Below are positions 2,659 to 36,312 of a stretch of 37,779 bases of DNA, in pieces. Where the stretch lies: the NCBI RefSeq assembly GCF_001548115.1, contig NZ_AP014828.1:1-37779 (forward strand), read 5' to 3'. Both the position numbers and the translations under genes were made by a program. The stretch's first letter is position 1, and each line of letters begins with the position of its first letter. This DNA is from Geminocystis sp. NIES-3709. Its GTDB lineage: Bacteria > Cyanobacteriota > Cyanobacteriia > Cyanobacteriales > Cyanobacteriaceae. Under the pieces are notes generated by a model. That model made no database searches, was not told where the DNA came from, and saw only the letters and a program-made list of their open reading frames with translations.

Positions 2659-2672
2659 TATGGAATTAGACT

Positions 2673-3659
2673 CTATTCACTAAAATTCAAATCCTTACGT
2701 TCCATAATAGCTGAAATTAAAGACTCTTCGCTGATTTTCTGGGTATTTGCCAAAACGGCTTGCTTTGCAGCCTCATCGGTTGCTCTTACAATTTCAGCTT
2801 GAGCAAGTCCATTAGCTTGCTGAATAATTTTTGACCAATCTTTCCAGCCAATTTCAAAGGTAATAAGACGGGATTGAATCAGTTCACAAATAATTTTGGC
2901 ATCAGGAAGCTCATATTTAATCACATCATCAAAACGTCTAAAAAGAGCCTTGTCTAGTAGTTGAGGATGATTAGTTGCTGCCAAAATCAAACTATCCCCC
3001 CGATCATTTTCCAAAAACATCAAAAAAGAATTAAGATTTCGACAGATTTCTCCTACATCGTTAGAATTATTACGTTGAGTACCGATGACATCAAATTCAT
3101 CAAAAAAATAGACTCCTTTCGTTATTGTCATTGCCTCGAAAATAAGCCTTAAGCGACTAGCTGTTTCTCTCATGTATTTACCAATTAAACTATTGTATAA
3201 AGTTGTAAACAGAGGTAATTTAAGCTCTCCTGCTAATGCTTCAGCAGTCATAGTTTTGCCTGAACCTGGTGGTCCAACTAATAAAAGTCTCCGACGAGGT
3301 ATAAGATTATATTCTCTGAGTCGTTGTTCTTGTCTTTGCTCGGTTAACACTCTTTTAAGTCTAAAACTGAGATCAGAAGTCAGAATCATATCCGATAATC
3401 GGGTATCGGGATATCTAACCGAAACCAGATTCGCTAAATCTCCTTTCGGTTGTACTAAAGGAATAGGTTCAGATTTTCTCTCTATGACCGATTTACGAGC
3501 TTTTGCTTGGTCAATTAATTCTCGAATTTCTTGAGCTAACTTACCATGTCCTTTTCTAGCTTCATGCGCAGCCATCTGTAGAGCAGCAGAGTAAAATTGT
3601 TGCTCCTCTCCTTCCACATGACTTCTTAGAAGTGCTAGAACATGATGTGCAGTGAACAT
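2673..3659 (-). CDS. ietA: AAA+ ATPase partner of the subtilase (IetA-like)
   Basis: A 328-residue single-domain AAA ATPase, first gene of the operon with the subtilase. Walker A is GPPGSGKT at 129-136, Walker B is VYFFDEFD at 183-190, sensor-1 Asn is N230 in AATNHPQ, and probable arginine fingers are R241/R242 in ALFRRFD. Residues 1-80 form a helical, charged N-terminal region that could contact the protease or a substrate. The start is supported by GGAG six to nine bases upstream of the ATG and by a TATAAT box at 3685-3690. In the IetAS family the ATPase is thought to restrain or direct the protease; which partner is toxic in this copy cannot be told from sequence. AAA ATPases of CDC48/FtsH style share these motifs, so the name rests on the pairing. 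Confidence 0.83.
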   Translation of the reverse strand: MFTAHHVLALLRSHVEGEEQQFYSAALQMAAHEARKGHGKLAQEIRELIDQAKARKSVIERKSEPIPLVQPKGDLANLVSVRYPDTRLSDMILTSDLSFRLKRVLTEQRQEQRLREYNLIPRRRLLLVGPPGSGKTMTAEALAGELKLPLFTTLYNSLIGKYMRETASRLRLIFEAMTITKGVYFFDEFDVIGTQRNNSNDVGEICRNLNSFLMFLENDRGDSLILAATNHPQLLDKALFRRFDDVIKYELPDAKIICELIQSRLITFEIGWKDWSKIIQQANGLAQAEIVRATDEAAKQAVLANTQKISEESLISAIMERKDLNFSE

Positions 3660-5150: not shown

Positions 5151-5294
5151 ATGAGCTTATGAAAATAATTCAGATCATGAGCTTATGAAAATAATCATTT
5201 GATTGATGAAATTAACCATCTGACTGATGAAATTAACCATCTAATGAAATTAACCATCTGATGGAATTAATCAGGTCATTATGATTAACCATCT
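5151..5294 (+). repeat. Iteron-like direct repeats, candidate plasmid origin
   Basis: Two families of direct repeats sit just upstream of rep. ATGAGCTTATGAAAATAAT occurs at 5151-5169 and 5177-5195. GATGAAATTAACCATCT occurs at 5205-5221 and 5226-5242 (21-bp spacing, two helical turns). It recurs as ATGAAATTAACCATCT at 5244-5259, as a degenerate copy at 5260-5276, and as ATGATTAACCATCT at 5281-5294, which includes the first possible start codon of rep. Direct repeats next to an initiator gene are the usual mark of an iteron origin with Rep binding and autoregulation. Origin function is inferred; no DnaA box was confirmed. Confidence 0.65.
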
Positions 5295-8200
5295 CATTAT
5301 GATAATGGAAAACGGTAAAATTGTCGCCCCCCCTCTCAAAGAAATCACTGCCAGCCCTGAGTTTACCAATTCTAAGCACAGGTCTAACCCTCATGGTGAG
5401 TTTAATGATAAAAATCTTTGGTCTTCACAAAACTTAACAATTGGTCAAGAAACGTTAACACAAAAAAGACCCCTGCGAACAGATATATCATTCTCCGTCT
5501 GTTCCGAGTTGATCAATAAACCTGTCACAAATTCCGACAAGGCAAAAACTAATTTTTACTCCATGTCAGGAAATGTTGATAATATTATTGACATATTTTG
5601 TAAAGGGTTCGCCGTTAGTCCTTTTCACTATACAAATAACCACAGAAGTAGTGAAAATGCTACTGTTGCTGGTTTATTAATCGTCGATATTGATAACCAA
5701 GGGTGGGTTGAACAAGAAATCATTAATGGCAATAACCATCACGATAATAGTGGGCATAAGAATAACAATAAACCTGAAAATGATTTGGGCAATAAGCCTC
5801 AAAATAATAATGGGCATGGCGATAATAGCGAGAATGGGAATGCGAACAATAATGAGAATGGTAATGGAAATGGGAATAACGCGCGAAAAATTATTAAACA
5901 AAAGGTATATCAGCATCAGTTAACCCTAGAAGAATATCAGTCGATCGATTTCTGCCGTAAATATACTTTTGCCATTACCACAGCAAGTCATAGGTCAACA
6001 TGGCATCGATTCAGGGTTTTTATGCCCTTACCCATGGATATTGATAAAACTACCTATGAGGTGGCTGTAAGGCATTTAAACACCATTTTAAAGGGGGCTG
6101 TTGATATAAATGCCACTAACCCTAGTATCGGCTTTTACGGCAATAGTAACGGTATCCTGTACAAATCCGATGATTTTCAAGCCTTAGACTATGACTGGCT
6201 ATCTCAGTTACAGCCCGAAGTGGACAAGATTAAGAAGAAACAAGAAAAACAGCAACGGAAACAAACCAAAAGAATTGCTGAAAAACTAAAACAACTTGGA
6301 GACAATACCAATGTTAAAGATATTGTTGAGGCACTGTCTTATATACCATGCGATGATTATGATACTTGGACTAAAGTAGGTTTTGCTTTACATCATACTT
6401 TTAACAGTAGTGATGAAGGGTTAGAAATCTTCGATAATTGGTCGTCTCAAGCCCACAATTATAGTGGTAGAAAAGCGATTGAATACAAATGGCTCTCATT
6501 TAGCAAATCACGCACCGATAAACCCCTTACCATTGCTACGGTGTTTAAGTTGGCGATCGATTCGGGGTATAAACCACCCAAAAAGATTAGAAGAAAACTG
6601 GATGCCTTTAGCTGTTTCAATGAATATAAACCTTTATCCTATGAAGTAGCATTGGAATGTAATGAGCGTTATTTCTCCGAGGAGATAATCGCCAAAATTC
6701 CCCGTCAAGGATTAGTTATTATACAAGGAGACATGGGTACTGGTAAAACCTACTTAGGGGAGAAAATTGTAGGAGAGTTTAAAGCCCAAGGCAAATATGT
6801 ATTATCGCCTGATAGTACCAGAAGCCTCTGCCAACAGTCGGCTAATCGTTATGGTATTTATTACAAAACCCATGATGATACCACCCCTATCAAAAATTTA
6901 AGAAGTCAGGGCATTAAAACTACCTATGACAGCTTTGCTAAATATCAAGATGAAGCTCCTGATTGTATTATTTTTGATGAAATTTTCTCTAGTGAAAACC
7001 ATTTATTATTAGGTGAGACAGATTTAAAACATAATCGGGAAGAAGTACTCTATGCTGTCAGAAATGTGGTGAAAAACTGCATCGATAAAGGTGGTTTAGT
7101 TCTTTGTCTTGATGAAATGTTACTAGATTTTTGCATCGATTTAATGAAAGATTTTGTAGGTGGTATTGATCCTTTTATTGTTGTTAATCATTACCGTAAT
7201 AACAATTATGAAACTTATCAATTACTAAATGCTGATGATCCGAAAAAAATCCTCTTTACTATGCCGACACTAGGTTTAAAACCTTTTTACTGTTGCGATA
7301 GTCAAAAAGAAGTTATCTCTCTCTATCAAGAATTATCGACTACTTTTCCTGATAAAAATTTTAAACATATCCATCAAGGTAACGCTAATCTGTCTGAAAA
7401 TAAGGAATTACTCAAGAATCCTACCCTCTGGTTACAACATAATCAATGTGATGGTTTAATTGTTAGCCCTACTATTGTCTGTGGTTTCTCCATCGAGGGT
7501 AATTTCTTTGATGGGGTTATTGGTAACTTTTGTGGTGTTTTACCTGTTAACCAATGTCGCCAAATGTTAAGACGCATCCGTACTGATATTCCTCGTTATG
7601 TTTATGCTAGTAGTCACGGGTTGAGTTATGCGTCGGAGTTTGATTTTCAGAAAATCGCTGATAAGGCTATCTCGAAGAAAAAGACTAAGTTAGATTTACT
7701 CAAACTATCGTCACTCATTGCTAAAAGTGATCTACCCTTTGAATATATGAAGGTATTACAAACTATGATTAATCCTGAAACGGGCAAGTGGCAAAATATT
7801 GAGCTTATCACTCAATCGAAATATATTGCTTTTATTAATGCTGGTAAGGCTAACTATCGGGAAAATATTTTTAATGAGTTAAGGGATAGTGGTAGCACTA
7901 TCATTTATAACTATAGCTATGACCAATTTGTGGCTGACTTTGTGGAGGTAGGATTTACGGAAGAATCTTTACATGAGCATAGTCAAAAAGATTTTAAAAC
8001 TATTATCAAAACTCACCATGATTTGGAAATCAATCATAAAGCTGAATCTATTTCTTTCGGAGATACTACGGGATATGATTTGGAATCGGCACAAGATGTC
8101 TTAAAAAATCGTTATGCCCAGAATCCTAAAACTCACGAGCCTTTATACTCTGAGGAAGATATTGCGGGCGCTCAAAAATTTATCTATCAAGATTTGTTAC

Positions 8201-9156
8201 CCTCTGTGGAATTAACCCCAGATTTTATCAAGGAATACTTACTCGAAGATAACCGAAAATTGAGATCGATCGAGCGTTATTACTGGTTGAATAATTTTAG
8301 TTTACTGAAGAAGAAGGAAACTATTAAAGCTCTTAATTGGTTACACAATTCCCGTCGCCTTGTCTATTTGGAAAAGGATTATGATGATTTGCTACTGGAA
8401 ATTCATCTTTTAAAGGTGCTAGAAGTGCAAAAATTCATCGATTTAGACGGTTGTTTTACGAGAAAGGATAAATCTATCAAGAGCTTCTTTAAACGTGCCT
8501 TAAAGCACAAGCAAGAGTTGCAGGATTATTTCAACATTACCGTTACAGCCCACAGTAATCCTATTATCCTCTTAAAAAATTTACTCAAGTCTATTGGTAT
8601 TAAGTTGGAGTCAAAGGTTAGAAAAGTCAATAAGGTTAATACCAGAGTCTATCTTATTGATCGATCTTATCTTGATGATGATATAAGACAATCGGTATTA
8701 AAATCTTATCAAATCCGTAATACGGGGTTAAAAACTGTTAAAGGAAAAATCAAAAAATTTAGTGAAAGTTTTGAGAGTAACAAAAATCATGAAATTATTA
8801 TCAATAAGGAATTTGAAGGCGATAACAACTGTTACAAAAATGACTCTATATCATATAATAATCAAGTCGATTCTGTAGCTATCATTAAGGTTACAACAAA
8901 GGCTACAACTGAGGAGTTAAAACAAGGGGAAAATTGCCAAATAGAAGGAGTAGCTATCGAGGGGAACAAAAACTCTGAAACTATTATCAATAGTGAACTG
9001 GAAGCCGATAACAACTGCTACGAAAACGACTCTAAATCATATAATAATCAAGTCGATTCTGTAGCTATCATTAAGGTTACAACTGAGGAGTTAAAATTCG
9101 GGGAAAATTGCCAAATAGGAGGAGAATCGAGCGATCGAGGGGAACAAAAACTCTGA
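5281..9156 (+). CDS. Plasmid replication protein, primase-helicase (CyRepA-like)
   Basis: A 1291-residue initiator of the kind carried by many cyanobacterial plasmids. The N-terminal part has archaeo-eukaryotic-primase features: acidic motif VDID at 135-138 and a Ser-His at 236-237 (TTASHR). A PriCT_2-like segment follows at ~345-410 (IPCDDYDTWTKVGFALHH). The helicase core has Walker A GDMGTGKT at 483-490 and Walker B CIIFDE at 562-567, with a later arginine-rich MLRRIRTDIPR. An Asn/Gly-rich stretch (~148-200) splits the primase motifs. The last ~130 residues are two copies of a repeat (NNQVDSVAIIKVTT). A 4-base insertion before a third copy shifts the frame and ends the protein early. No clear RBS precedes ATG 5281; ATG 5296 or 5302 are alternatives. 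The start lies inside the iterons, which suggests autoregulation. Confidence 0.85.
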   Translation: MINHLIMIMENGKIVAPPLKEITASPEFTNSKHRSNPHGEFNDKNLWSSQNLTIGQETLTQKRPLRTDISFSVCSELINKPVTNSDKAKTNFYSMSGNVDNIIDIFCKGFAVSPFHYTNNHRSSENATVAGLLIVDIDNQGWVEQEIINGNNHHDNSGHKNNNKPENDLGNKPQNNNGHGDNSENGNANNNENGNGNGNNARKIIKQKVYQHQLTLEEYQSIDFCRKYTFAITTASHRSTWHRFRVFMPLPMDIDKTTYEVAVRHLNTILKGAVDINATNPSIGFYGNSNGILYKSDDFQALDYDWLSQLQPEVDKIKKKQEKQQRKQTKRIAEKLKQLGDNTNVKDIVEALSYIPCDDYDTWTKVGFALHHTFNSSDEGLEIFDNWSSQAHNYSGRKAIEYKWLSFSKSRTDKPLTIATVFKLAIDSGYKPPKKIRRKLDAFSCFNEYKPLSYEVALECNERYFSEEIIAKIPRQGLVIIQGDMGTGKTYLGEKIVGEFKAQGKYVLSPDSTRSLCQQSANRYGIYYKTHDDTTPIKNLRSQGIKTTYDSFAKYQDEAPDCIIFDEIFSSENHLLLGETDLKHNREEVLYAVRNVVKNCIDKGGLVLCLDEMLLDFCIDLMKDFVGGIDPFIVVNHYRNNNYETYQLLNADDPKKILFTMPTLGLKPFYCCDSQKEVISLYQELSTTFPDKNFKHIHQGNANLSENKELLKNPTLWLQHNQCDGLIVSPTIVCGFSIEGNFFDGVIGNFCGVLPVNQCRQMLRRIRTDIPRYVYASSHGLSYASEFDFQKIADKAISKKKTKLDLLKLSSLIAKSDLPFEYMKVLQTMINPETGKWQNIELITQSKYIAFINAGKANYRENIFNELRDSGSTIIYNYSYDQFVADFVEVGFTEESLHEHSQKDFKTIIKTHHDLEINHKAESISFGDTTGYDLESAQDVLKNRYAQNPKTHEPLYSEEDIAGAQKFIYQDLLPSVELTPDFIKEYLLEDNRKLRSIERYYWLNNFSLLKKKETIKALNWLHNSRRLVYLEKDYDDLLLEIHLLKVLEVQKFIDLDGCFTRKDKSIKSFFKRALKHKQELQDYFNITVTAHSNPIILLKNLLKSIGIKLESKVRKVNKVNTRVYLIDRSYLDDDIRQSVLKSYQIRNTGLKTVKGKIKKFSESFESNKNHEIIINKEFEGDNNCYKNDSISYNNQVDSVAIIKVTTKATTEELKQGENCQIEGVAIEGNKNSETIINSELEADNNCYENDSKSYNNQVDSVAIIKVTTEELKFGENCQIGGESSDRGEQKL

Positions 9157-25158: not shown

Positions 25159-26817
25159 ATGTCTCTGAATCCACAACCAATCCCACCAGTTCCCGAAGAT
25201 ACATATAAGGTAGCTCAAGCAGCATTTCCCAAGGGTAATCTTTATCTACGCCTACGAGATGAATTAGGAGTGTTTTATACCGATTGCGATTTTGACAATC
25301 TTTATTCTCTATATGGTCAACCAGGATACTCCCCTTGGAGATTAGCAATGGTTTTGATAATGCAATTTTTGGAAAATCTCTCAGATCGACAAGCAGCAGA
25401 AGCAGTCAGAGGACGTATTGACTGGAAATATGCTCTCTCTTTAGATTTAACTGATCCTGGTTTTGATTTTACAATTTTGAGTGAGTTTCGTGAACGTCTA
25501 ATCACGGAAGTTGAGGAACAAAAATTACTCAATAAGATGTTAGAAAAATTTCAAGAAAAAAGATTAGTTTGTGGCAAAGGAAAACAACGTACTGATTCAA
25601 CCCATATATTGGCAAAGGTTCGGGAACTGACGAGACTGGAAAGTTTGATAGAAACGGTACGCTATGCCTTAAATACTTTAGCAGAAGTAGCTCCTGATTG
25701 GTTGGAAGCAAATCTTCAAAGTGAATGGTGTGATCGTTATGGAAAAAGAGCTGAAAATACTCGCTTACCGAGTAAAAAAGACGAACGGAATGCTTTAGCA
25801 GTAACGGTTGGCAAAGATGGATTTGATTTACTTTCTGCCATATATTCAGAAACAGCATCAATGGAATTACGTAGTCTTAAAGCCATAGAAATAATGCGTC
25901 AAATTTGGCTACAACAATATTATGCACCAACGGACAAAATTCAATTAAGAAACGAAAAAGATGGTCCACCTTCAGCCATCAGAATCCGTTCCCCTTATGA
26001 AATAGAGGCTCGGAATAGCACTAAACGTAGTACTAATTGGACAGGCTATAAAGTCCATCTAACGGAGACTTGTGACGAGAATCTACCTCATCTGATTACC
26101 AATGTGGAAACCACCGTTGCCACGACTCAAGATCAACAAGTGGTGACATCAATTCATCAATCCTTAGCAGAACAAAACTTAGAACCAAATCGGCATTTAG
26201 TAGATCAAGGATATACCAGCACCCGTTTAATTACACAGAGTCAGAACGACTATCAAATTGACTTATATGGACCTGTAGCAAAGAGTGGAGGATGGCAAGC
26301 TCAAACCGAATTTGGTTTTGATTTATCTCATTTCCAAATAGATTGAGATAATCGACAAGTATATTGTCCACAAGGGAAAAAAAGTCGCTCATGGAAAAAA
26401 GGAAAAGATAAACAGGGAAATCCCACTGTTCGTGTTGAGTTTCGACAAAATGAATGTAAAAATTGTCCAGTTCGGTCTTTGTGTACACGTGCGCCCGTAC
26501 ATGCTAGAGGTCTAACTTTACTACCACAACCTGAATATGAAGCTCGACAAAAAGCAATAAAAAGACAAGAAACTGAAGAATTTAAAAAACAGTATAAACT
26601 TCGTTCTGGGATTGAGGGAACTCTGAATCAAGGTATTAGGGGATTTGGGCTTCGTCAAAATCGTTACATTGGATTAGCTAAATCTCATTTACAGCATATT
26701 TTAACCGCTACAGCGATGAATCTTCTGCGAGTCTTTAATTGGTTAGAAAATATTCCTTTAGCTAAAACAAGATCTTCATCCTTTTCTCGTTTTGTCTATT
26801 CCCTTAGCTCCAAGTAA
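25159..26817 (+). pseudogene. IS1182-family transposase with an in-frame TGA
   Basis: 552 codons. DUF772-type N-terminus (GYSPWRLAMVLIMQFLENLS), DDE residues Asp146 (RTDSTHIL), Asp349 (LVDQGYTST) and Glu486 (RSGIEGTLNQ). Codon 396 is TGA at 26344-26346, where relatives have a Trp (FQID-W-DNRQVYCPQG), so TGG to TGA is the simplest explanation. The truncated product lacks the catalytic Glu and should be inactive unless the stop is read through or the base is an error. RBS AGAGGTG lies six bases before ATG 25159. A copy of the 15-bp palindrome sits 50 bp upstream of the start. Confidence 0.85.
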
Positions 26818-27668: not shown

Positions 27669-27896
27669 ATGTCGGAAATAAACAAACAAGCTGGAAAATA
27701 CGATGCGGTTATCAGCACACAACCTCAAACCCCTATGTTTCCGCCAAATCCAGATACTTTAACCCTTTTTTCTTCTCCTCTGGGTGACATTCAAATTGAT
27801 TTAAGATATTCAAGCAGAGCTAACTTTTGCTTTGGTGGGAGGTTAGTGCCGAACAGATGGCCATTGTTGTCTTTTCCTTCCTCTTTAGTGTTGTAA
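27669..27896 (+). CDS. Doubtful short reading frame, possible 5' fragment
   Basis: 75 codons from ATG 27669, the last ~35 overlapping the 3' end of the cytochrome gene on the other strand. The first 40 residues (MSEINKQAGKYDAVISTQPQ...) look like real coding sequence, the rest like antisense shadow. It may be the leftover start of a gene cut when the neighbouring block arrived. No family recognised, no good RBS. Confidence 0.25.
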   Translation: MSEINKQAGKYDAVISTQPQTPMFPPNPDTLTLFSSPLGDIQIDLRYSSRANFCFGGRLVPNRWPLLSFPSSLVL

Positions 27897-29500
27897 AGGA
27901 ACAATCCCTCGTTCTTTAAGCCGATATGTTCTGGATCGAACTCATTTGTTCCAGTTTGGAAGGTTGTCGGGCGTTTCTCAGGTTTAGAAAGCACGTCCCA
28001 AAGTGTTGGAACCGAACCGTTGTGAAAATATGGGGACGAGGCGAAGATTCCTTCCATTGGAGGTGCCCAATAGACCGCTCCGCTTTTGTTCCATTTATCT
28101 TTGGGGGAAGCACTGGAGTATTCCCCTTCTTTTGTAAGGGCAAACTCATTCGGTCTTCCTCTCGAATCGTGTTTCAGGTAATTCCCTGTTACCTCTTCTC
28201 CAAATTTTTCCTCTAGCTGTCCTTGGCGAAGTTCCAAGATTTTGTTTGAAACATTCAGAAGTCCTTCTGCACGTTTACTGGCATCCTTCTGGAATTGTTG
28301 GTAAGCAATGGGGTCTGTTCCTACGTCGAAAGCCAGACGCTTTTTAAATTTTATGCCGAGGGAATTCGGTGGTTCGTAGGTTCGTGTATGGCACTGGGCG
28401 CAGTTCTGTTCAAACAGAACTTTGCCTTGAGCAATCAATTTTTGGTCGAGCTGTCCCAAAGCAGATTCCGGCCACTTTGGAGTCCGAAGGCGTTCTAGGG
28501 AATCTTGAATTTCTTCGATATTATCGAAATCAATAGATGCCAGAACCGCCTTCTCTTTAAGAGCCTCAATCATCTTCGGTGGACGCACCGCTGAAGTAGA
28601 AATAGACTGAATCCAGTTTCGTGGTCCTGGGTGGTGAATTTCAGCAAACCACTGAGCCCAGGTATCTTTAGGAGAGAACCACACTGGTGGGTAGTTAACA
28701 GCCCCTTCCAACCGAACCGGTAATGGTAGCTCGCCGCCGGGTTTAATTAGCCCTTTGTGCCTCATCCACCCGAGAATTCCCACGTTATTGTAGTAACCTT
28801 GCGTTAGGGCGTTCAGATTACCAGGACCAGAGTCGGCCTCTGGAATTTTCATCCCATTAATGATCTCTCTGGTAAAAATAAAGGGACCGGTGAACTCGCG
28901 TATTTCGTCTCGCAGGCTGTCGATATCCTGCTGCTCTGGAGCCCTTTGCAAGACCGCCGTTGCGAATGTTTCCATCAAGACATCATCATCTAATAAAGCT
29001 AAGAACGAGTCGTACAAGTCTTCCTGAAAACGGGGAAAGTCCACCAGACTGGGACCTCCGTGGACTGGAAATATCCACTCTGAGTCGTAGCTAGAACTAT
29101 CAATTTTACTATAAGTTAATTGTCGTGTATGGCAGGCCGCACAAGTGACCCCAAGGTAGGGGCGATCGCCAAACTTTACTGGTCGTTTATCGATGGCAAA
29201 CCCGACCGGCAGTTGGTAGGGGTTAAGTTCCGATTTGTTACTTGGAATAAAGCCGTATTCTGAGCTTAACTTATCGATGAATTTCGAGTCGGGAGCCTTT
29301 GGATCGGGAAGGTTGAGTACGAACTCAAGAGGAGCAAGGTTTGTTCCTTCAGAAGCATGGTTGTAAAATTGAACTTCCTGCTCCGACCAACCCTGGTTCA
29401 GTTCAGCGACCTGTGGCTTCACATTTGCAAATGCCTCGCTGTAGATAAGGCACAGAGAAAGTCCAAAGATAAAAAAACATTGGAAGATTTTGTAAAACAT
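27791..29500 (-). CDS. Di-haem cytochrome c peroxidase-like protein
   Basis: 569 residues with a signal peptide (MFYKIFQCFFIFGLSLCLIY..AFA). Two haem c sites are visible: CAACH at 120-124 and CAQCH at 366-370. The spacing and the block PPMEGIFASSPYFHNGSVPT near the C-terminus match the di-haem cytochrome c peroxidase/oxidoreductase superfamily. It would act in the periplasm or thylakoid lumen on peroxide or an organic substrate. The gene is clearly richer in G+C than the plasmid average, suggesting another source. It lies 60 bp after the Asp-box gene on the same strand and may be the last cistron of the hydrolase train, but its link to that function is not evident. Confidence 0.82.
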   Translation of the reverse strand: MFYKIFQCFFIFGLSLCLIYSEAFANVKPQVAELNQGWSEQEVQFYNHASEGTNLAPLEFVLNLPDPKAPDSKFIDKLSSEYGFIPSNKSELNPYQLPVGFAIDKRPVKFGDRPYLGVTCAACHTRQLTYSKIDSSSYDSEWIFPVHGGPSLVDFPRFQEDLYDSFLALLDDDVLMETFATAVLQRAPEQQDIDSLRDEIREFTGPFIFTREIINGMKIPEADSGPGNLNALTQGYYNNVGILGWMRHKGLIKPGGELPLPVRLEGAVNYPPVWFSPKDTWAQWFAEIHHPGPRNWIQSISTSAVRPPKMIEALKEKAVLASIDFDNIEEIQDSLERLRTPKWPESALGQLDQKLIAQGKVLFEQNCAQCHTRTYEPPNSLGIKFKKRLAFDVGTDPIAYQQFQKDASKRAEGLLNVSNKILELRQGQLEEKFGEEVTGNYLKHDSRGRPNEFALTKEGEYSSASPKDKWNKSGAVYWAPPMEGIFASSPYFHNGSVPTLWDVLSKPEKRPTTFQTGTNEFDPEHIGLKNEGLFLYNTKEEGKDNNGHLFGTNLPPKQKLALLEYLKSI

Positions 29501-29560: not shown

Positions 29561-30283
29561 TTAGCTATCACTACTAGCTGCTTGATATACTATAGGAAAT
29601 ACTCCTAAGGATTTATCGAGAGAAAATCCTGAAATTGTTGCAGTTATTTTCCAGAGATTACTAAAATCAAAAGGATTGTGGTGCAGACTTTGCCATGTAA
29701 AGTATTCAGAAGGTATGATATCAATCTCTGTCCATGTTTTGCCAGCATCAGTTGTTTTAAAAAAGAATTGGACATTTTCTCCTTCTGTATTAAATGTTTT
29801 TCCAATGACAATACCTTCTTTTTCTGATTTAAAGCGCAATCCTTGAGCTTCTGTAAAAGAAGCAATGCCACCTTTAGCCGTAATTGCTTCATGAATTATT
29901 GAAGATTCTTGCCATGTTTCTCCAAAATCATTGGTCTGATATAAAGTTGGAAATGTTCCCGCAACTTGCCATTGTGTGATAAACCAACCCTGAGTTTCAT
30001 TGGGAAAAAATATTTCTTCTTTCACTAACGATCCTTGTGTTGCATCTAGAGTTAAATGCCAATTATTCCCCCCGTCAGACGTTTTAAGCACGACTGTGTG
30101 AGTTCGCATTAAACTAGAGGAGAGAGGAGCTTTTTCTGCAAAGACGACAAATAGCAACGCTGAACTTGGATTAAAACTAATCAATTCTAAGTTATCGATA
30201 ATTGCTATAGCAGAGTCAGGATTATCCGTTGGGAAATCGGGGTTAATCGCCGCTTGAACAAGAATTTCATTTAAATTAGACAT
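29561..30283 (-). CDS. Asp-box (BNR/Ycf48-like) beta-propeller protein
   Basis: 240 residues with at least three Asp-box repeats: KTSDGGNNWHLT, QTNDFGETWQES and KTTDAGKTWTEI, the S/T-x-D-x-G-x-T-W pattern of sialidase-like and Ycf48-like propellers. There is no signal peptide. Propellers of this type bind proteins or glycans; a cell-wall or substrate-binding partner for the hydrolases encoded upstream would fit. It is 65 bp after the protease-endopeptidase gene and probably cotranscribed. Too short for a full six-blade sialidase; no catalytic Arg triad seen. Confidence 0.78.
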   Translation of the reverse strand: MSNLNEILVQAAINPDFPTDNPDSAIAIIDNLELISFNPSSALLFVVFAEKAPLSSSLMRTHTVVLKTSDGGNNWHLTLDATQGSLVKEEIFFPNETQGWFITQWQVAGTFPTLYQTNDFGETWQESSIIHEAITAKGGIASFTEAQGLRFKSEKEGIVIGKTFNTEGENVQFFFKTTDAGKTWTEIDIIPSEYFTWQSLHHNPFDFSNLWKITATISGFSLDKSLGVFPIVYQAASSDS

Positions 30284-30348
30284 GGTTACTCTCTACAATT
30301 TAAGAAATCTTTTGGGTGCAACTGTTGCACCCAGATAACAAAACAGAA

Positions 30349-31863
30349 TTACTTGATAAATCGTACATGAAGATGATCATCATGCCCCGGCCAAGGTTGA
30401 ACCCCTTGAACTTTTTTATCATTGAAAAGAATCACTTTGACTCTGAGAATTGGATTACTTAAAATGGTGTTCACTAACGCTTGGGTTCGAGTACGAGAAT
30501 AGCTAGGACTGAGAAAGGTGATACCAGTTCTTGCACCATCTGTTCTTAATAGGCGAAAATCAACATCTAATCCCGTTTGATGACTGCTATGGGGCGGTAC
30601 GGGACCACCTCCTTGCTTGCTGATGTTTCCTACGCCAATGACAGGACCAGTACGATGACTTGCAAACCATAATTCACCAATTTTTTTGATTGCTTCGATG
30701 GTTTCAGTTAAGCCAAATTGCTTCTCACGGAATTTGGCATAACTGTAGTAACCCGTTCCCTTGATAGGGAGTTGAGTATCGACTGCGGGAAAAGGAACAG
30801 CTTCTAAGTCCTCAAGACTTTCCTCATCTAGGGGAGAAAAACAGGGAGTATCTTTCAACTCAATAGGGGTTTCATTATCAACAGTTTCCACGTCAGCAAG
30901 ATTTGGGAAAATGATGACGGAAGATTCTGCACTATCAAGTAGATTGGATGCTCGGCGAATTGTGCCAATGGAGACACCAAAATTAGCCCCAGAAAATCCT
31001 GAACATCCTCCATTTGTATGTACACCAACTACATTACCGTTTTTTTCTGCCAGAATTGGAGAACCGGATGAACCTCCTTGCGTGTCAATGTCATCATAGG
31101 AAATCTGACCGCTTTTATTGTCGGTTAAAGGACCAGCTTCAATTTTCTTTGGATTACCATTAGGATGTTGAATGACGCATAACATGGAGCCTGGATGAGT
31201 CAAGTCTTGTGAAGACAAATTTAATGTTCCATACTTCTCTGAGGGCGATTCTCCTGCTTCGTTTCGACCTAATTGAATAATTGCGTAATCTAGCCTATCT
31301 TCTCGGTATTCTAGAAGATTAATGATCGGAAAGCGATCGTCAGGACGGGGTTTGTCAGTAGTAGGATCGATCTGAAAGTTAAAATTTACGTGCATTAATG
31401 TCGCAATTTCTGAAGAAGAAATTACTTTATTATTACGAGATGGTCTTTGCCATCCACCGCCAGTTTGATCGAAACAATGCCCTGCTGTTAAAAATTTATC
31501 CCCTTCAATTAAACATCCCGTACACCAGCGTTTTCCTTCAACATTTCCGGGATCTTCTCCTTCTTTACTAAAAAGATCGGCAATATTCTCTTGCCATTGT
31601 AATTGACCAACTGGGGGAGAAAATTGATCGACAAAATTCTTTGTAACACCTAGAGTTCCATCATATTTTTCAACATCTTGGCCATCATCCTTGTGACCAC
31701 ATATTGACTCACTAACTTGTGTAATCAATATATCTAGTTCTTCAACTTGATCCATTAATCCGTCTCTTTGTTGAACTAAATCATCGCGAGTCTCTACACT
31801 ATGCTCTAATTCAGAACTGTCTTTTTTAGGGGGAAAAGGAAGGCTATTGCGTTTTTCAAACAT
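30349..31863 (-). CDS. Trypsin-like protease fused to a MepA-like murein endopeptidase
   Basis: 504 residues from ATG 31863 (GGAG eight bases upstream; an earlier in-frame start would overlap the preceding gene). A coiled coil (~20-50) leads to an S1 protease with His129 (FLTAGHCFD), Asp192 (RLDYAIIQL) and Ser266 (GGSSGSP). After a linker, residues ~370-504 resemble the M74 murein endopeptidase MepA or related LAS peptidases: HSSHQTGLDVDF (zinc His425/His428, Asp433/435) and HDDHLHVRF (His494-499). MepA cleaves the D-Ala-meso-DAP cross-link. No signal peptide. The fusion suggests that proteolysis releases or activates the endopeptidase; this is inference. Confidence 0.85.
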   Translation of the reverse strand: MFEKRNSLPFPPKKDSSELEHSVETRDDLVQQRDGLMDQVEELDILITQVSESICGHKDDGQDVEKYDGTLGVTKNFVDQFSPPVGQLQWQENIADLFSKEGEDPGNVEGKRWCTGCLIEGDKFLTAGHCFDQTGGGWQRPSRNNKVISSSEIATLMHVNFNFQIDPTTDKPRPDDRFPIINLLEYREDRLDYAIIQLGRNEAGESPSEKYGTLNLSSQDLTHPGSMLCVIQHPNGNPKKIEAGPLTDNKSGQISYDDIDTQGGSSGSPILAEKNGNVVGVHTNGGCSGFSGANFGVSIGTIRRASNLLDSAESSVIIFPNLADVETVDNETPIELKDTPCFSPLDEESLEDLEAVPFPAVDTQLPIKGTGYYSYAKFREKQFGLTETIEAIKKIGELWFASHRTGPVIGVGNISKQGGGPVPPHSSHQTGLDVDFRLLRTDGARTGITFLSPSYSRTRTQALVNTILSNPILRVKVILFNDKKVQGVQPWPGHDDHLHVRFIK

Positions 31864-31907
31864 ATTTGGTCTCCATTTTTTGGTAATAAGGACAAAATCA
31901 AACTTGA

Positions 31908-32825
31908 CTACGGACAACCCAAAGATTCTTCTTCAAAGATTTGGGTATCATCTAGGACTTTAACCATAACCGTAGCGGCTGCATTGGATGTTCCTGCGGT
32001 TGCGACTAATATGGTTTGTCCCTCTTCTTCAGCTAAGGATGCGATACAACTTTGCCAGTTTCCTTCTTCATTCTTAATTGCTTGAGGGATAAGAGAAACA
32101 ACTCGCTCCCAAGCAATATCAAGGGGAATGGTTGCGTGTCCTTTTTCATCCAAAGAGAAAGAAATGCTGTAAGTTATCAAGTTGAGATGGGGTGTAATCT
32201 CCATTTCAACTTGTGAGATAGAAGAATTTAAAGTAACTTCCGTTTCTCCGCTTCCTAATGCTTCTGGCGAACCGACAAACTCTAAACTTCCTCCCATGAT
32301 AATTTCTACTTCAGACCGGGTATAACCGGGATCCCAATGAGTATTTTCAGGTACTTGGGAATGTCCATAATGTCCTCCTGTTTTGTCCCAATTGTTAGCA
32401 TTACGATTATGTCCTCCTGGATCTCTTGTGCCAACTTTGGGAAAACCATTCGGCCATTTTTGAGGAACACTATGAGTTTGTTCAATCCAGCGACATAATT
32501 TAGCGACATTTTTAAGGGTTGCTGAATTTTTAGGTTTACCCGCAAAACCAACCACCTCAATTTGAATCGCTGAATCTCGGTTAGTTTGAACACCACCCGG
32601 CGGATTGGCTAAAGAACGAGCAGAAACACTAGTGTCAATGTGTTGATAAATTGTTATAGGATCAACGGTAAAATGCGGATCAGATTTATTTGCTTTATAC
32701 GCTCCCATTGCACCGGAGGCTGTTGAACCTTCAGTGGTGTGATGAACAATCTTAAAAGGACCTCCTGAATAAGCTCCGACTCCTCCAGTAATGGGTTTCC
32801 ATGTTGCGAAAGGACATTTAGCCAT
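31908..32825 (-). CDS. N-acetylmuramoyl-L-alanine amidase (PGRP/AmpD fold)
   Basis: 305 residues from ATG 32825 (CGAGGT six bases upstream). Zinc site as in AmpD/Amidase_2: His28/29 in KIVHHTTEG, His155 and Asp165 in GHSQVPENTHWDPG; IQIEVVGFAG is the conserved central strand. It should cut the amide bond between MurNAc and the stem peptide. The C-terminal ~120 residues form a beta-rich domain of unknown role. No signal peptide although the substrate is extracytoplasmic. It is 19 bp after the lipoprotein gene and 44 bp before the protease-endopeptidase gene. Confidence 0.85.
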   Translation of the reverse strand: MAKCPFATWKPITGGVGAYSGGPFKIVHHTTEGSTASGAMGAYKANKSDPHFTVDPITIYQHIDTSVSARSLANPPGGVQTNRDSAIQIEVVGFAGKPKNSATLKNVAKLCRWIEQTHSVPQKWPNGFPKVGTRDPGGHNRNANNWDKTGGHYGHSQVPENTHWDPGYTRSEVEIIMGGSLEFVGSPEALGSGETEVTLNSSISQVEMEITPHLNLITYSISFSLDEKGHATIPLDIAWERVVSLIPQAIKNEEGNWQSCIASLAEEEGQTILVATAGTSNAAATVMVKVLDDTQIFEEESLGCP

Positions 32826-32844
32826 AAGTACCTCGAAAAATGAA

Positions 32845-33294
32845 TTAAGGTTGAATTTGAACACAGGGAAGCGTCTGAGTTAATTCTTGTAATCTTCCCC
32901 AAAAATATTGCGTGGATTTGCTTTCTGCACCATAGCGATCACCTAAACTTTTAGCTTTTTCTGCCGCTTGTTTTCCGGCTAAAGCGTGTTGTTGATCACA
33001 ATCACAAGGTGCTAAATCATAGGCTTTTTGATAATAAGCGATCGCTTCTAGAAAATTCCCTGCTGTTTCTGCTTGAAAAGCCAAGCGAAAATAACGATCT
33101 AGTTCTGTTTCTTGAGGTTTTGGCTCTTCACTGGGATTGAGAAATCGGGTAGAACCCTCACAAGAATTCGGGGAAAAAGTTTGGACAAGTTGGGAAGGCT
33201 TAAGTGCAGGAAACTGTTCACTATTTGGTAATCCGCAACCCATCAAAAAGCAAAAATCTAAGACAAGAATCAACCCAAAATAAGGGAAAGACAT
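32845..33294 (-). CDS. Small TPR lipoprotein
   Basis: 149 residues with a lipoprotein signal: hydrophobic MSFPYFGLILVLDFCF and lipobox LMGC (Cys20). Residues ~85-135 hold a tetratricopeptide pair (YFRLAFQAETAGNFLEAIAYYQKAYDLAP in part), for protein contact. It is the only protein of the peptidoglycan-hydrolase group with an export signal. Its ATG is five bases after the GH19 stop codon, so it is translationally coupled. It could be an immunity or docking protein protecting the producer; that is a guess from context. Confidence 0.75.
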   Translation of the reverse strand: MSFPYFGLILVLDFCFLMGCGLPNSEQFPALKPSQLVQTFSPNSCEGSTRFLNPSEEPKPQETELDRYFRLAFQAETAGNFLEAIAYYQKAYDLAPCDCDQQHALAGKQAAEKAKSLGDRYGAESKSTQYFWGRLQELTQTLPCVQIQP

Positions 33295-33299
33295 CGAAT

Positions 33300-34190
33300 T
33301 TAACTACTCATAATTTGCATCAAGGTTAGTTCTTCAATCCCTAACAATTCTTGTGCTAATTCTGGATTCTCTGAAGATTCTGCAATAACTTCTTCAAAAG
33401 CAACAGATTCAGCATTAAGCTTAGATAACCAAGCGTTAGCTAAATTCTTGATTTCTTTTGCTTTATCATCCCCATTGATCACTCGTCGGACCTTCAAAAA
33501 ATCTGTTTGATTGCCATTGACATAAGTTCCTAATTTTTTACCTGTAAATTCTCCAAGTAATATTCCATCAACTAGGATAAATAAAGCAATATTAGGTTCC
33601 ATCACTTTATCGGGATTAGATACTAAATCAGTTCCTAATTTTCGAGTATATTTTTCATAGTTATACTTCCAAGTTAATTGGACATATCCTCGCCCATAAT
33701 AGGGAAAATAAGATTTAGTTCTCAGATGTGCCATTTGTCGGGAACGAGGCTTGATGAAAAATGCTTCTTCAACAGGTTTAAAGCTAAAAGCTGTTTCATG
33801 TTCCACTGTTGCTAACACATAGGCAATTTGCGTGTTCAGCAACAATCCTCGGCGTTTACATTCGTGGATAATTGCTTTTTGTGTTCCTTGCTTGGTGCTA
33901 AAATCGTGAGTTGCTTTTCCTGTAGATGCTTGAAGATTTAATAAAAATTGTGCGGTTGTTGGACCGAGAATATCTCCTCCTGAAATAGCAAAGGCTTCCT
34001 TAAAATCTCTTAACGCTTCTCGCGTAATTTTTCCATAAAGTCCATCGATCGTAAAATGATAAAAATTATTAACTTTGAGAATCGTTTGAATTTCTCGACA
34101 GAGTTGCTCATCAAATGCTAATTGCGATGTCCCGATATCCCCATAGGGAACTTGAAGTTGATTGTTGATAACATCCTTAAGAGTAGTCAC
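33300..34190 (-). CDS. GH19 lysozyme/chitinase-like endolysin with peptidoglycan-binding domain
   Basis: 296 residues. Residues ~25-85 are a PG_binding_1 domain (TIDGLYGKITREALRDF). From ~100 the GH19 fold begins: AYVLATVEHETAFSF with catalytic Glu132, a second acid among Glu141/142, and the signature YFPYYGRGYVQLTWKYNY (161-178). Such proteins cut the glycan strands and are common as phage endolysins. Start is a GTG with GAGGT seven bases upstream. No signal peptide. It heads the amidase-endopeptidase run; 133 bp separate it from the protease/SGNH gene and contain a small leader frame. Confidence 0.85.
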   Translation of the reverse strand: MTTLKDVINNQLQVPYGDIGTSQLAFDEQLCREIQTILKVNNFYHFTIDGLYGKITREALRDFKEAFAISGGDILGPTTAQFLLNLQASTGKATHDFSTKQGTQKAIIHECKRRGLLLNTQIAYVLATVEHETAFSFKPVEEAFFIKPRSRQMAHLRTKSYFPYYGRGYVQLTWKYNYEKYTRKLGTDLVSNPDKVMEPNIALFILVDGILLGEFTGKKLGTYVNGNQTDFLKVRRVINGDDKAKEIKNLANAWLSKLNAESVAFEEVIAESSENPELAQELLGIEELTLMQIMSS

Positions 34191-34257
34191 GGGTTTTACC
34201 TCGAAGTAAATAAGAGTAAAAAGTTAAGTTACAGGGGTTACGGCATTCGAGTGGCAC
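34177..34257 (-). CDS. Possible 26-codon leader peptide before the GH19 gene
   Basis: GTG at 34257 has a perfect AAGGAG six bases upstream. It opens a short frame (VPLECRNPCNLTFYSYLLRG...) whose stop lies 14 bases inside the GH19 gene, overlapping its GTG start in another frame. The overlap is what translational coupling looks like. It may be only chance. Confidence 0.35.
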   Translation of the reverse strand: MPLECRNPCNLTFYSYLLRGKTRDYS

Positions 34258-34323
34258 AATAAACTCCTTATATAATGAAGAAGATAAAATGAAGAAGATA
34301 AAATATTATTTTTTTTGCGATGT

Positions 34324-36312
34324 CTAACTTGGAATTAGGGGACGGATTACCTGATTAAATGCCCCCGCCACTCGTCGATATCCGCTATTTTTAAGGTGCA
34401 GTTCATTCTGCCAATCAGAATCCGAAATTAACGATCGTAGATCAACATAGTGTAACCGAGAATCGGTTGCTGCAAACTGTTCCAACATAGAATTAAAGTC
34501 ATCAATTAGATCTCGCATGATCTGCTGTTGTTCAGTGCGTTGTTCATAGCCTTTAGCGACAAGGGCAGGTCTGAGCCAAGGTCCGACAAACGAAAATCCT
34601 AGGAGACGAATCACGGCTCGCCCATCAGGAATTGGATATCCATAGCCATGCACAACGATATGAATGTTTGCGTCTTTTTTCCAGATTTCATTGGAAATAA
34701 ACCTAAAAATCTGTAAAAAGTAGTCTTTGAGCATAAAGCGGGTGTAGTCTGATCGCAGTGGCGGCAACCCTGAAATTTTGTGATTCAGAAAACTCAAGAG
34801 TTCATCCCCAGCAATATCGTTGCCACCCCCAGAGAGGAGGACAACCGGAGGGCGATGTTTCTCGATCGCTGCTAGAGTTTCTTCCAAGGGAGAACGATCA
34901 CGTTGCCACCGCCTTTGATCAAACGTCGTTCCCCAAGCCATGTTATCCAGGGTATCCCCAGCTTTAGAAACGTTATAAATCTTATAGTTAAAAAAATGTT
35001 TTAAGCAGGCGATTATATCGAGTCCAGCCGGAGCATAGTCGAACCATGAATCTCCCTCGGCAACTAATATAGGTTCCGTACTAGTCGTTTCCAGAGAAAA
35101 CTCTAGAGTATTCGCATCAAGTTCACTCATCATCTGAGCAATTTCTTCTGGGTTTAGTCGATCAAGTTGTTCATCAGAGTAGTTCTGTAGAGAGGTGCTA
35201 CGCTCAGTGATTGCTGGAATTGTTAGAGTGACAGGCGTTTCGACTGTTGGGCGTGGAACTGTTCCCGGTCGATTTTGGATTACCGTCTCAAAAATATCAA
35301 TGCGATGTCGATTCGGATCTGCCGATAGTTTTGATCGGACATCCTGCACAATGCTACTGATTCTCACCCCTTCGTTGGCTTTCCAAGCGATTCGCTCCGC
35401 GTTTTCGGGTCGTCCATCGAACACTTGACCATCAATCATCAGAATTTGCCCCTGGAGATTTCGTTGAGGAACCCCAGAATGATGTAAAGCAGCTAGTACC
35501 CACTGCATATTACATACGGGTGAACCAGAGGCTCCACGCTCGGTATCGGCAGCATAATGTAAGAAATCATCAATGACATCGGTGATGTTGTTATTCCGAA
35601 TGGCAATTTGCTGGGGTTCTCCAGCAGGATGCTGAATCACGTTCACAGGCTCACCAATCAAGACTTTACCGGACTCAGCAATCAAGGGAATAAAGCCTCG
35701 ATCACTCAAAGGCAAGCCTTCGTCGGACTGGGGAGCAACGGCGACAAACGCATAGTCTAACCGCTGGTCATTCAGGAAGAATTGCCTTGGTCTGAAGCGA
35801 TGGATAATGGTAGGTCGAGTTGTACCATCCTGACGTTCATAAAAGTCAAATTCAACAAAGCTATCGGCTGCAATATCAGCGGTTTCGAGCACATGATGAT
35901 TGGTGAGGAGGAGTTCTGGAGAAACGAGAAACCCAGTGCCATAGCCAATTGTACGACCCTGTTGTCGCAGGGTAATTCGACCCACCGAGCGAGCCACAGC
36001 AGTCCCGATCGGCAAGAACCTACTAGAAACTAAATCATCTTCTTCGATGATGCGTTCTAAGAGGCTAACCTCTTCCCCCTGTTTCACAGCTGACTGAATT
36101 GGCTGTGTTACCATCTCGGTTGCAATCAATTTGCTAGCGAGTTCCTGGAGTTCAAGGTCGATAAGTCGTTTCATCACGCGCTTAGGCGTTTCAACCTGCC
36201 GCCAGTCTCCACCAACTTTTAAATTTGCCTCATTCTGGCTTCTGTTGCTGCTATGATCTGCATAGCGTTGCTCGGTAGCAGCTATTTGCTTTTCAAAACT
36301 TGATTGGGACAT
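34324..36312 (-). CDS. Trypsin-like protease fused to an SGNH/GDSL hydrolase
   Basis: 662 residues from ATG 36312 (GGAAAG seven bases upstream). The N-terminal ~100 residues are helical; the S1/V8-like protease follows with His140 (LLLTNHHVLE), Asp186 (RLDYAFVAV) and Ser262 (RGASGSPV). After a linker (~340-410) comes an SGNH hydrolase: block I GDSW 420-423, block III GGGND 495-499, and terminal His639 in ELHLKNSGY. SGNH enzymes are esterases; acting on O-acetylated peptidoglycan or other glycans would suit the neighbours. No signal peptide. The gene is GC-richer than the plasmid average. First gene of the minus-strand train ending at the cytochrome gene. Confidence 0.85.
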   Translation of the reverse strand: MSQSSFEKQIAATEQRYADHSSNRSQNEANLKVGGDWRQVETPKRVMKRLIDLELQELASKLIATEMVTQPIQSAVKQGEEVSLLERIIEEDDLVSSRFLPIGTAVARSVGRITLRQQGRTIGYGTGFLVSPELLLTNHHVLETADIAADSFVEFDFYERQDGTTRPTIIHRFRPRQFFLNDQRLDYAFVAVAPQSDEGLPLSDRGFIPLIAESGKVLIGEPVNVIQHPAGEPQQIAIRNNNITDVIDDFLHYAADTERGASGSPVCNMQWVLAALHHSGVPQRNLQGQILMIDGQVFDGRPENAERIAWKANEGVRISSIVQDVRSKLSADPNRHRIDIFETVIQNRPGTVPRPTVETPVTLTIPAITERSTSLQNYSDEQLDRLNPEEIAQMMSELDANTLEFSLETTSTEPILVAEGDSWFDYAPAGLDIIACLKHFFNYKIYNVSKAGDTLDNMAWGTTFDQRRWQRDRSPLEETLAAIEKHRPPVVLLSGGGNDIAGDELLSFLNHKISGLPPLRSDYTRFMLKDYFLQIFRFISNEIWKKDANIHIVVHGYGYPIPDGRAVIRLLGFSFVGPWLRPALVAKGYEQRTEQQQIMRDLIDDFNSMLEQFAATDSRLHYVDLRSLISDSDWQNELHLKNSGYRRVAGAFNQVIRPLIPS

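What the first reader, a model, noticed from the sequence alone, without database searches (positions are those of the whole stretch)
29561..36312. Gene train encoding nearly every way to cut peptidoglycan, tied to trypsin-like proteases
In one minus-strand run: glycan cleavage (GH19 with PG-binding domain), MurNAc-amide cleavage (PGRP/AmpD), peptide cross-link cleavage (MepA-like), possible deacetylation (SGNH), two trypsin-like proteases fused to two of these, a TPR lipoprotein and an Asp-box propeller. None of the enzymes has a Sec signal, so they would be released by lysis or by a secretion/injection device, or act inside. The single lipoprotein could protect the producer. A protease-activated lytic weapon or suicide system is a reasonable hypothesis; I know no named system with this set.
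Basis: partly seen in the sequence, partly recalled or inferred. Interest (0 to 1): 0.8.

Follow-up and report, generated by a model that had tools for sequence, protein, structure and literature searches.

The report
Protease-tied cell-wall-lysis gene kit
A cyanobacterial plasmid carries a run of genes for enzymes that could take a bacterial cell wall apart, tied to intracellular protein-cutting enzymes; similar combinations turn up in unrelated bacteria, sometimes in one giant protein, which suggests a programmed self-lysis device for which I found no description as a system.

Summary
One minus-strand run (36312-29561) encodes protease+SGNH, PG-binding+GH19, a TPR lipoprotein, Amidase_2, protease+MepA-type endopeptidase (M74) and an Asp-box protein; a secreted RoxA-like gene follows. 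Active-site motifs are present; the enzymes of the train proper show no leader. The window is a whole contig, probably a plasmid of a Geminocystis/Cyanobacterium relative.

The grouping is not chance: one Rhizobium protein joins SGNH, amidase, M74 and subtilase; one Calothrix protein joins subtilase, LysM, GH19 and CHAP; four alphaproteobacterial plasmids carry an SGNH-amidase-M15 gene followed by a trypsin gene; the best relatives found of the amidase and the Asp-box protein sit in equivalent trains. Against: no complete copy elsewhere, the closest S1-SGNH relatives are partial, ten cyanobacterial S1 neighbourhoods lack such hydrolases, and no trigger gene is seen.

Best reading (inferred): a protease-licensed lysis module acting from inside, like LypABC or gasdermin systems but with wall hydrolases and an esterase as executioners. 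A released weapon is the main rival. Nearest known: Kaur 2020 'System 3', Caulobacter LypABC, metacaspase-amidase-GDSL proteins. New variant of a known kind.

The parts
34324..36312 (-). S1-SGNH: 662-aa chain without leader; N-terminal region, Trypsin_2 protease, SGNH/GDSL hydrolase
   Evidence: Pfam; triad conserved in relatives; 78% identical partial relative in Desmonostoc L011
33300..34190 (-). PG-binding domain + GH19 glycosidase of endolysin type, no leader
   Evidence: Pfam; PHROG endolysin; 51% identical to the host's own prophage GH19
32845..33294 (-). TPR lipoprotein (lipobox FLMGC), role unknown
   Evidence: Pfam TPR_2 3.4e-4, below cut-off; hydrophobic N-terminus
31908..32864 (-). 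Amidase_2 (probable start 32822), no leader, with an extra C-terminal part
   Evidence: Pfam; 62-64% full-length relative behind a subtilase gene in G057:C2
30349..31917 (-). S1-M74: Trypsin_2 protease + MepA-type murein endopeptidase (probable start 31863), no leader
   Evidence: Pfam; alignments to MepA and V8 protease
29561..30283 (-). Asp-box/BNR propeller-like protein, no leader
   Evidence: Pfam (below cut-off); the better of two relatives in 386 genomes lies in an M15-GH19-BNR-Amidase_2 train
27791..29500 (-). Secreted CytoC_perox/RoxA-like protein directly behind the train; membership uncertain
   Evidence: NF040606 1.4e-95; hydrophobic N-terminus; 60 bp gap

Best explanation
A plasmid-borne programmed-lysis module. 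Leaderless PG hydrolases for three bond classes (GH19 glycosidase, Amidase_2, M74 endopeptidase) accumulate harmlessly in the cytosol, with an SGNH esterase fused to an intracellular trypsin-like protease. When an upstream cue (no gene for it seen here) activates the proteases, they cut themselves and/or partners and free the effectors; the SGNH opens the membrane, and the hydrolases reach and dissolve the wall: bacterial pyroptosis with wall hydrolases instead of, or after, a pore. Shown: gene content, motifs, lack of leaders, recurrent fusion and adjacency of protease, esterase and PG hydrolases in distant bacteria. Inferred: proteolytic activation, the membrane role of SGNH, self-directed lysis, the trigger.
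For: One-chain parallels: Rhizobium TH2 1651 aa GDSL+Amidase_3+M74+S8; Calothrix plasmid 1546 aa S8+LysM+GH19+CHAP and a sub-threshold Lipase; G193 M74+PGB+GH19 beside caspase-nSTAND1-WD40 and caspase-hydrolase genes; Mesorhizobium S1+EEP+SGNH (phmmer); SGNH+caspase in six plasmid neighbourhoods (one by Pfam; the other five by phmmer against it). Adjacent: an SGNH+Amidase_3+M15 gene followed 9-41 bp on by a Trypsin_2 gene on four alphaproteobacterial plasmids. Best amidase relative in 373 genomes lies 21 bp behind an S8 gene. Best Asp-box relative in 386 genomes lies inside M15-GH19-BNR-Amidase_2 beside a divergent WD40 gene. The S1 partner varies: Endonuclease_1, Endonuclease_NS, Exo_endo_phos, Lipase_3, PLD. 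A divergent gene with a shared HTH-like N-terminus lies within 2 kb of the PG train in 4 of 7 other genomes, nominal chance 2.4e-6, post hoc. Precedent: in LypABC, LypC (trypsin-like + endonuclease) needs its peptidase, not its nuclease, for cell lysis, and the lytic effectors are unknown (PMC13236601: abstract, passages, section 9).
Against: No experiment. No NLR, CARD, holin or gasdermin among the hits in the window, so the trigger is missing. No full copy of the train was found. Both closest S1-SGNH relatives are partial: the Desmonostoc copy lacks the part before about residue 124-142 and lies behind a transposase frame, the G032 copy lacks SGNH. None of 10 cyanobacterial S1 neighbourhoods (L078-L087) held a relative of the window's GH19, amidase or M74. 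Of seven other M74 loci only G193 has a protease beside it that I recognised. SGNH relatives lack an S1/S8/C14/CHAT protease nearby in 7 of 20 plasmid neighbourhoods inspected, some near chitosanase, peroxidase or tyrosinase genes with no obvious target inside a bacterium. The secreted RoxA-like protein is unexplained. LypC was not compared by sequence. The predicted structure was useless (pLDDT 33).
Confidence: 0.46

Rival explanations
1. A released or delivered arsenal: the leaderless hydrolases are stored and set free when a few producers lyse, or are delivered, to harm competitors, predators or grazers; the proteases mature the enzymes outside.
For: No leaders, PG-binding domain; some SGNH relatives lie near chitosanase (L107, L109), peroxidase and tyrosinase genes (L101), and a relative of the S1-M74 protease lies 3.7 kb from a heparin lyase gene (L015); endolysin-type hydrolases can work from outside on some cells (recalled).
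Against: No eCIS or T6SS sheath in the host apart from what reads as a prophage sheath; S1 domains fused to nucleases and SGNH fused to caspases point to intracellular action; no immunity gene recognised.
Confidence: 0.27
2. A loose collection: endolysin-type and hydrolase genes accumulated on a plasmid by transfer, with no joint function.
For: GC of the genes is uneven (0.357-0.464); transposase frames lie beyond the cytochrome end (25159-26817); no complete copy elsewhere; S1 and GH19 relatives often stand apart.
Against: Repeated one-chain fusions of the same activities, tight or overlapping genes on one strand, and the amidase and Asp-box relatives sitting in equivalent trains.
Confidence: 0.14
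3. Wall turnover or nutrient use: the enzymes digest peptidoglycan of dead neighbours or recycle the cell's own wall.
For: The enzymes would together digest a wall; a secreted haem protein follows.
Against: No leader on any of the hydrolases; fused proteases without leaders; such sets elsewhere carry nuclease or caspase domains.
Confidence: 0.08

Closest known systems
Kaur et al. 2020 'System 3' (trypsin-like peptidase coupled to NucA endonuclease), eLife 9:e52696, PMC7159879 (section 32 and passages seen)
   Same: Trypsin-like protease fused to an effector; 26 of the 60 plasmid rows shown (81 records in all) for the window's S1 part are annotated endonuclease; extra S8 proteases; the paper notes EAD1-linked lysozyme- and papain-like PG peptidases and proposes a proteolytic cascade.
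   Different: No NucA and no recognised EAD1 in the window; effectors are SGNH and M74, with a train of PG hydrolases. The paper's main text holds the words SGNH, amidase and endopeptidase zero times.
LypABC / CARD-NLR systems (Caulobacter crescentus; Nat Microbiol 2026, PMC13236601; abstract, passages and section 9 seen)
   Same: LypC has the same layout, N-terminal trypsin-like domain and C-terminal hydrolase domain, and its peptidase is needed for cell lysis.
   Different: No LypA- or LypB-like partner recognised in the window; LypABC's lytic effectors are unknown, whereas here PG hydrolases sit alongside. Not compared by sequence.
Metacaspase-Amidase_2-GDSL proteins (Asplund-Samuelsson et al. 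2012, PMC3501461; passages seen)
   Same: One Chitinophaga pinensis protein combines protease, amidase and GDSL lipase, called 'a highly destructive weapon'.
   Different: Caspase instead of trypsin-like protease, one chain; no GH19 or M74 mentioned in the passages seen.
Phage/prophage endolysin cassettes
   Same: GH19 and amidase catalytic domains are of endolysin type.
   Different: Hydrolases for three bond classes plus proteases; no phage structural gene beyond two weak tail hits and no holin among the Pfam and PHROG hits in the window.

Membership tests
Kaur 2020 System 3 (trypsin-NucA) | Trypsin-like peptidase as core component | tested here: met
   Trypsin_2 in two proteins
Kaur 2020 System 3 (trypsin-NucA) | NucA/Endonuclease_NS domain as core component | tested here: not met
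   None in the 20 window proteins scanned with Pfam; present in relatives L013 and L083
Kaur 2020 System 3 (trypsin-NucA) | EAD1 domain on recruited effectors (only in a subset) | not tested
   No EAD1 model was searched for by name; none appeared in the Pfam output
LypABC / CARD-NLR | NLR-like STAND ATPase partner with repeats | tested here: not met
   No NB-ARC or NACHT hit in the 20 window proteins scanned; only sub-threshold nSTAND3 hits to two AAA ATPases (6e-5 to 2673-3659, 0.018 to 5281-9156), of which 2673-3659 is IetA-like and 5281-9156 matches plasmid replication genes
LypABC / CARD-NLR | Trypsin-like N-terminal domain fused to a C-terminal hydrolase (LypC layout) | tested here: met
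   Layout met in S1-SGNH and S1-M74; homology to LypC itself not tested
LypABC / CARD-NLR | CARD domain | not tested
   N-terminal regions of the S1 proteins were not compared with CARDs; the structure prediction failed
Prophage lysis cassette | Adjacent phage structural/packaging genes and holin | tested here: not met
   integrases, a transposase, plasmid replication genes; two weak tail hits only (E 0.029 and 5e-4); small ORFs not scanned
Injected (eCIS/T6SS) effector locus | Contractile sheath operon in the genome | tested here: not met
   One Phage_sheath hit, in what reads as a prophage; VipB not hit

The most novel reading that the evidence does not exclude
An unnamed class of bacterial executioner modules exists in at least cyanobacteria and alphaproteobacteria: an intracellular protease (trypsin-like, subtilase, caspase or CHAT) or a divergent HTH/STAND-type gene licenses a leaderless wall-lysis kit (glycosidase, amidase, endopeptidase, often with a lipase-like domain and sometimes an Asp-box protein). 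It is the wall-hydrolase counterpart of gasdermin pyroptosis, and supplies the kind of lytic effector that is missing in LypABC.
Probability: 0.4. Interest if true: 0.85.

Novelty: new variant of a known kind. Interest (0 to 1): 0.67.

Why it matters
Protease-triggered death in bacteria is known with pores, phospholipases and nucleases as executioners; how the wall is opened in such systems is open (LypABC: lytic effectors unknown). A compact locus with candidate parts for every step but the trigger, and several one-protein versions, makes that question directly testable, and could explain leaderless peptidoglycan-hydrolase trains that annotation leaves as hypothetical.

Tried and rejected
Structure of S1-SGNH: AlphaFold2 with two sequences gave mean pLDDT 33 and was not used. 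PDB sequence searches: nothing for SGNH or the amidase. Viral-contig scans found no relative of S1-M74 or S1-SGNH; they and the genome-contig scan work by short exact peptides and see close relatives only. Delivery by a contractile device: no support in this host; passages of two CIS papers (PMC8894136, PMC8213781) gave no trypsin-tied PG train. Rhizobium Pop5 gene beside SGNH is annotated S8/S53, but Pfam finds no S8, so it was not counted as a protease. My label 'lysozyme-like' for L017 residues 570-810, L089 and L102 rests on motifs by eye, no Pfam hit; not counted. Metalloproteases (M90, M12, matrixin) near some loci were not counted as the protease part. TPR lipoprotein: no relative in any locus held. 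Paper searches: (nine; several list only the best of more hits); they led to Kaur 2020 (30), LypABC (69) and Asplund-Samuelsson 2012 (117), and no listed title or abstract start describes the full combination. Supplementary files were not readable. Relatives are a sample: phylum searches covered 373-386 genomes each, drawn by the tool.
Full report
SETTING. The window is an entire contig, C8, of a 4.43 Mb genome in 12 contigs. Its two ends, joined, give one open frame of 93 residues, which reads transposase-like by eye, so the contig is probably a circular plasmid. It carries a CyRepA1-type replication gene (5281-9156); the best DNA match is a plasmid of Geminocystis sp. NIES-3708, 21% of the query at 87.7% identity. 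The host is therefore inferred to be a Geminocystis/Cyanobacterium relative. The rest of the plasmid (1-27700) has GC 0.351; the train genes range from 0.357 to 0.464.

THE TRAIN. On the minus strand, in order: S1-SGNH (36312-34324), PG-binding+GH19 (34190-33300), TPR lipoprotein (33294-32845), Amidase_2 (32864-31908), S1-M74 (31917-30349), Asp-box protein (30283-29561), then a secreted CytoC_perox/RoxA-like protein (29500-27791). Three Pfam assignments (GDSL, TPR, BNR) are below the curated cut-off. Gaps are short or negative, so one transcript is plausible; promoter and terminator scans do not help (29 found against 23.6 in shuffles, 11 against 9.3). Active-site motifs are in place. By a crude hydropathy test the enzymes of the train proper have no leader; only the lipoprotein and the cytochrome do. 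Of 46 proteins from other loci in the same test, 6 were flagged: three of them protease or lytic chains (L079 and two of L018) where the stretch does not look like a leader by eye, and three others (an L018 599-aa protein, DUF3616 in L107, heparin lyase in L015).

THE PROTEASE FAMILY IS MODULAR. At E 1e-10, 23 of 386 cyanobacterial genomes have some match to S1-SGNH. The arrangement S1 then SGNH was seen again only in Desmonostoc (78% identity; G309 has a contig of the same length and the same proteins); that copy lacks the part before about residue 124-142 and lies behind a transposase frame, so it is probably broken. In G032 the S1 part is 74% identical but SGNH is absent. In other relatives a protease with an alignable N-terminal region is fused to Endonuclease_1 (L078, L080), Lipase_3 (L079), Endonuclease_NS (L083, L013) or Exo_endo_phos (L022), and in Mesorhizobium to Exo_endo_phos plus SGNH (L012, phmmer); a trypsin-like domain is fused to PLD in R. 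etli (L091). In L080 an SGNH gene follows 10 bp after the S1-endonuclease gene. Against a fixed link to wall hydrolases: in the 10 cyanobacterial neighbourhoods L078-L087 no frame matched the window's GH19, amidase or M74.

THE SAME ACTIVITIES MEET AGAIN ELSEWHERE. In one chain: Rhizobium sp. TH2, 1651 residues: GDSL 57-246, Amidase_3 304-494, M74 1052-1144, S8 1364-1604, with a CHAT gene 5 kb downstream. Calothrix NIES-4105 plasmid, 1546 residues: S8, LysM, GH19, CHAP and a sub-threshold Lipase. G193: M74+PG-binding+GH19 in one chain, beside a caspase-nSTAND1-WD40 gene and a caspase-hydrolase gene. Side by side: an SGNH+Amidase_3+M15 gene followed 9-41 bp on by a Trypsin_2 gene in R. etli, S. 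fredii, S. meliloti and Paracoccus seriniphilus. Pfam was run on three of the four hydrolase chains (in Paracoccus it gave amidase and M15 only) and three of the four protease genes; the rest, and the Paracoccus SGNH, rest on phmmer. R. johnstonii has SGNH next to S1-NucA, a PG-binding protein 2.3 kb away and a PG-binding-M15 protein about 6 kb away. A Streptomyces plasmid has a hemopexin protein with a weak Amidase_2 hit, an S8 and an S1 gene within about 7 kb.

COUNT AROUND THE SGNH DOMAIN. 34 plasmid records have a relative of the window's SGNH domain at E 1e-5. I looked at neighbourhoods in 20 of these records (L012, L013, L017, L089-L093, L099-L110; in L012 the SGNH seen is another place in the same record than the one listed). 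A protease of type S1, S8, C14 or CHAT is in the same chain in 8 (L012, L017, L089, L090, L099, L103, L104, L106) and within 5 kb in 5 more (L013, L091-L093, L105): 13 of 20. Eight of the 20 (L012, L013, L017, L089-L093) had been fetched because of earlier protease or polyprotein hits and all eight count, which favours the number; among the 12 chosen from the SGNH list, mostly because their annotation named no partner, it is 5 of 12. The 7 without are L100, L101, L102, L107-L110 (L110 has two metalloprotease genes). A PG-active or PG-binding protein is in the chain or within 5 kb in 10 of 20 (L013, L017, L090, L091-L093, L099, L105, L106, L107; L106 and L107 rest on deposited annotation). Sources. 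The other 14 records were not inspected; three of them are annotated caspase (H120, H121, H123).

THE MINOR PARTS. The amidase has one relative besides itself in 373 genomes, 64% identical over its whole length, in G057:C2, 21 bp behind an S8 subtilase gene without an obvious leader (by eye) and ahead of PG-binding and SH3 proteins and a GHL10-like frame interrupted by transposase frames. The Asp-box protein has two relatives in 386 genomes; the good one (41%) lies in a train M15_3 - GH19 (18.8 bits, below cut-off) - BNR - Amidase_2 in G376, beside a divergent WD40 gene 228 bp away. That speaks for both belonging to such trains. GH19 is more common (32 of 373); six other GH19 loci that I read show no protease of my reference set nearby.

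A SECOND KIND OF PARTNER. S1-M74 has matches in 12 of 386 genomes at E 1e-10: the window, four by the protease part and seven by the M74 part. Of the seven M74 loci (L042-L048) six lie among, or are fused to, other PG-hydrolase domains, read by Pfam for some and by eye for the rest; only L042 (G193) has a protease beside it that I recognised. I then asked whether a divergent gene with the HTH-like N-terminus of the G376 WD40 gene is near the trains. In eight genomes searched it is within 2 kb of the train in G376, G057, G048 and G366; not in G370 (about 7 kb away), G268, G193 or the window's own genome (one copy, on the chromosome). G247, the seventh M74 locus, was not tested. With 3-14 copies per genome, the nominal chance of 4 of the 7 genomes other than G000 is 2.4e-6. 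The test was thought of after seeing the pattern, and the four genes differ: WD40 in two, NB-ARC in one, Uma2 in one. The Nostoc plasmid pNPM5 has a WD40 gene annotated NB-ARC ahead of its PG train, on the same strand.

ORIGIN OF PARTS. GH19 and amidase look like endolysins. The host chromosome has what reads as a Mu/P2-like prophage with a PG-binding-GH19 protein 51% identical to the window's; an IMG/VR contig has an amidase 49% identical; 334 of 50,697 phage records match GH19 at E 1e-5. Recruitment of endolysin genes is the simplest origin, but the window does not look like a prophage.

HOW IT MOST LIKELY WORKS. Shown: wall-cutting enzymes for three bond classes without leaders, two chains carrying intact-looking proteases, and a recurrent link of protease, esterase and wall hydrolases. 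Inferred: proteases hold or release the set; the SGNH attacks the membrane, because Lipase_3 or PLD stand in its place in relatives; the wall enzymes then act from inside. The best experimental precedent is LypABC, where the LypC peptidase is needed for lysis, its nuclease is not, and the lytic effectors are unknown (abstract, passages and section 9 of PMC13236601). Kaur et al. proposed a proteolytic cascade for the trypsin-NucA system and noted PG-cutting effectors there (section 32). Asplund-Samuelsson et al. noted a caspase-amidase-GDSL protein (passages). The weapon reading remains open, since some SGNH relatives lie near chitosanase, peroxidase and tyrosinase genes, whose targets would be outside.

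NOVELTY. The principle (protease-controlled cell death) and several two-part combinations are known. In the nine paper searches made no listed paper described the full combination as a system, as far as titles, abstract starts and the passages seen show. I rate it a new variant of a known kind.

Noticed in passing
172-3659: IetS/IetA-like subtilase + AAA pair, a known defence/maintenance pair, on the same plasmid (PADLOC 1.7e-36 and 6.9e-69).
   Followed up: partly
27791-29500; L011 12444-13376; L101 3618-6434: Haem peroxidase or oxidase-type genes recur next to SGNH genes: RoxA/CytoC_perox in the window, a frame that reads DyP-like by eye beside the Desmonostoc S1-SGNH, 'peroxidase family' in Acaryochloris. 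Unexplained.
   Followed up: no
L044, L045, L046, L047: Glucosaminidase-M74 chains with an Amidase_3-like gene beside them (mostly read by eye) in four cyanobacterial genomes; looks like a separate, more conserved lysis operon.
   Followed up: partly
L018 (Nostoc plasmid pNPM5) 4690-18078: PG-hydrolase train (M74, GH25-like, GHL10, M15, SH3) behind a WD40 protein annotated as NB-ARC.
   Followed up: partly
25159-26817: DDE transposase in two frames beyond the cytochrome end of the train; may be an insertion-element remnant.
   Followed up: no
L102 5567-6790: Gene annotated 'peptidase S8/S53' in Rhizobium sp. Pop5 has no S8 hit in Pfam; probably misannotated.
   Followed up: partly
L107, L109: SGNH genes with chitosanase genes without leader and a DUF3616 gene (a DUF3616 gene also lies near the R. 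johnstonii cluster L013): another recurring enzyme group on alphaproteobacterial plasmids.
   Followed up: no
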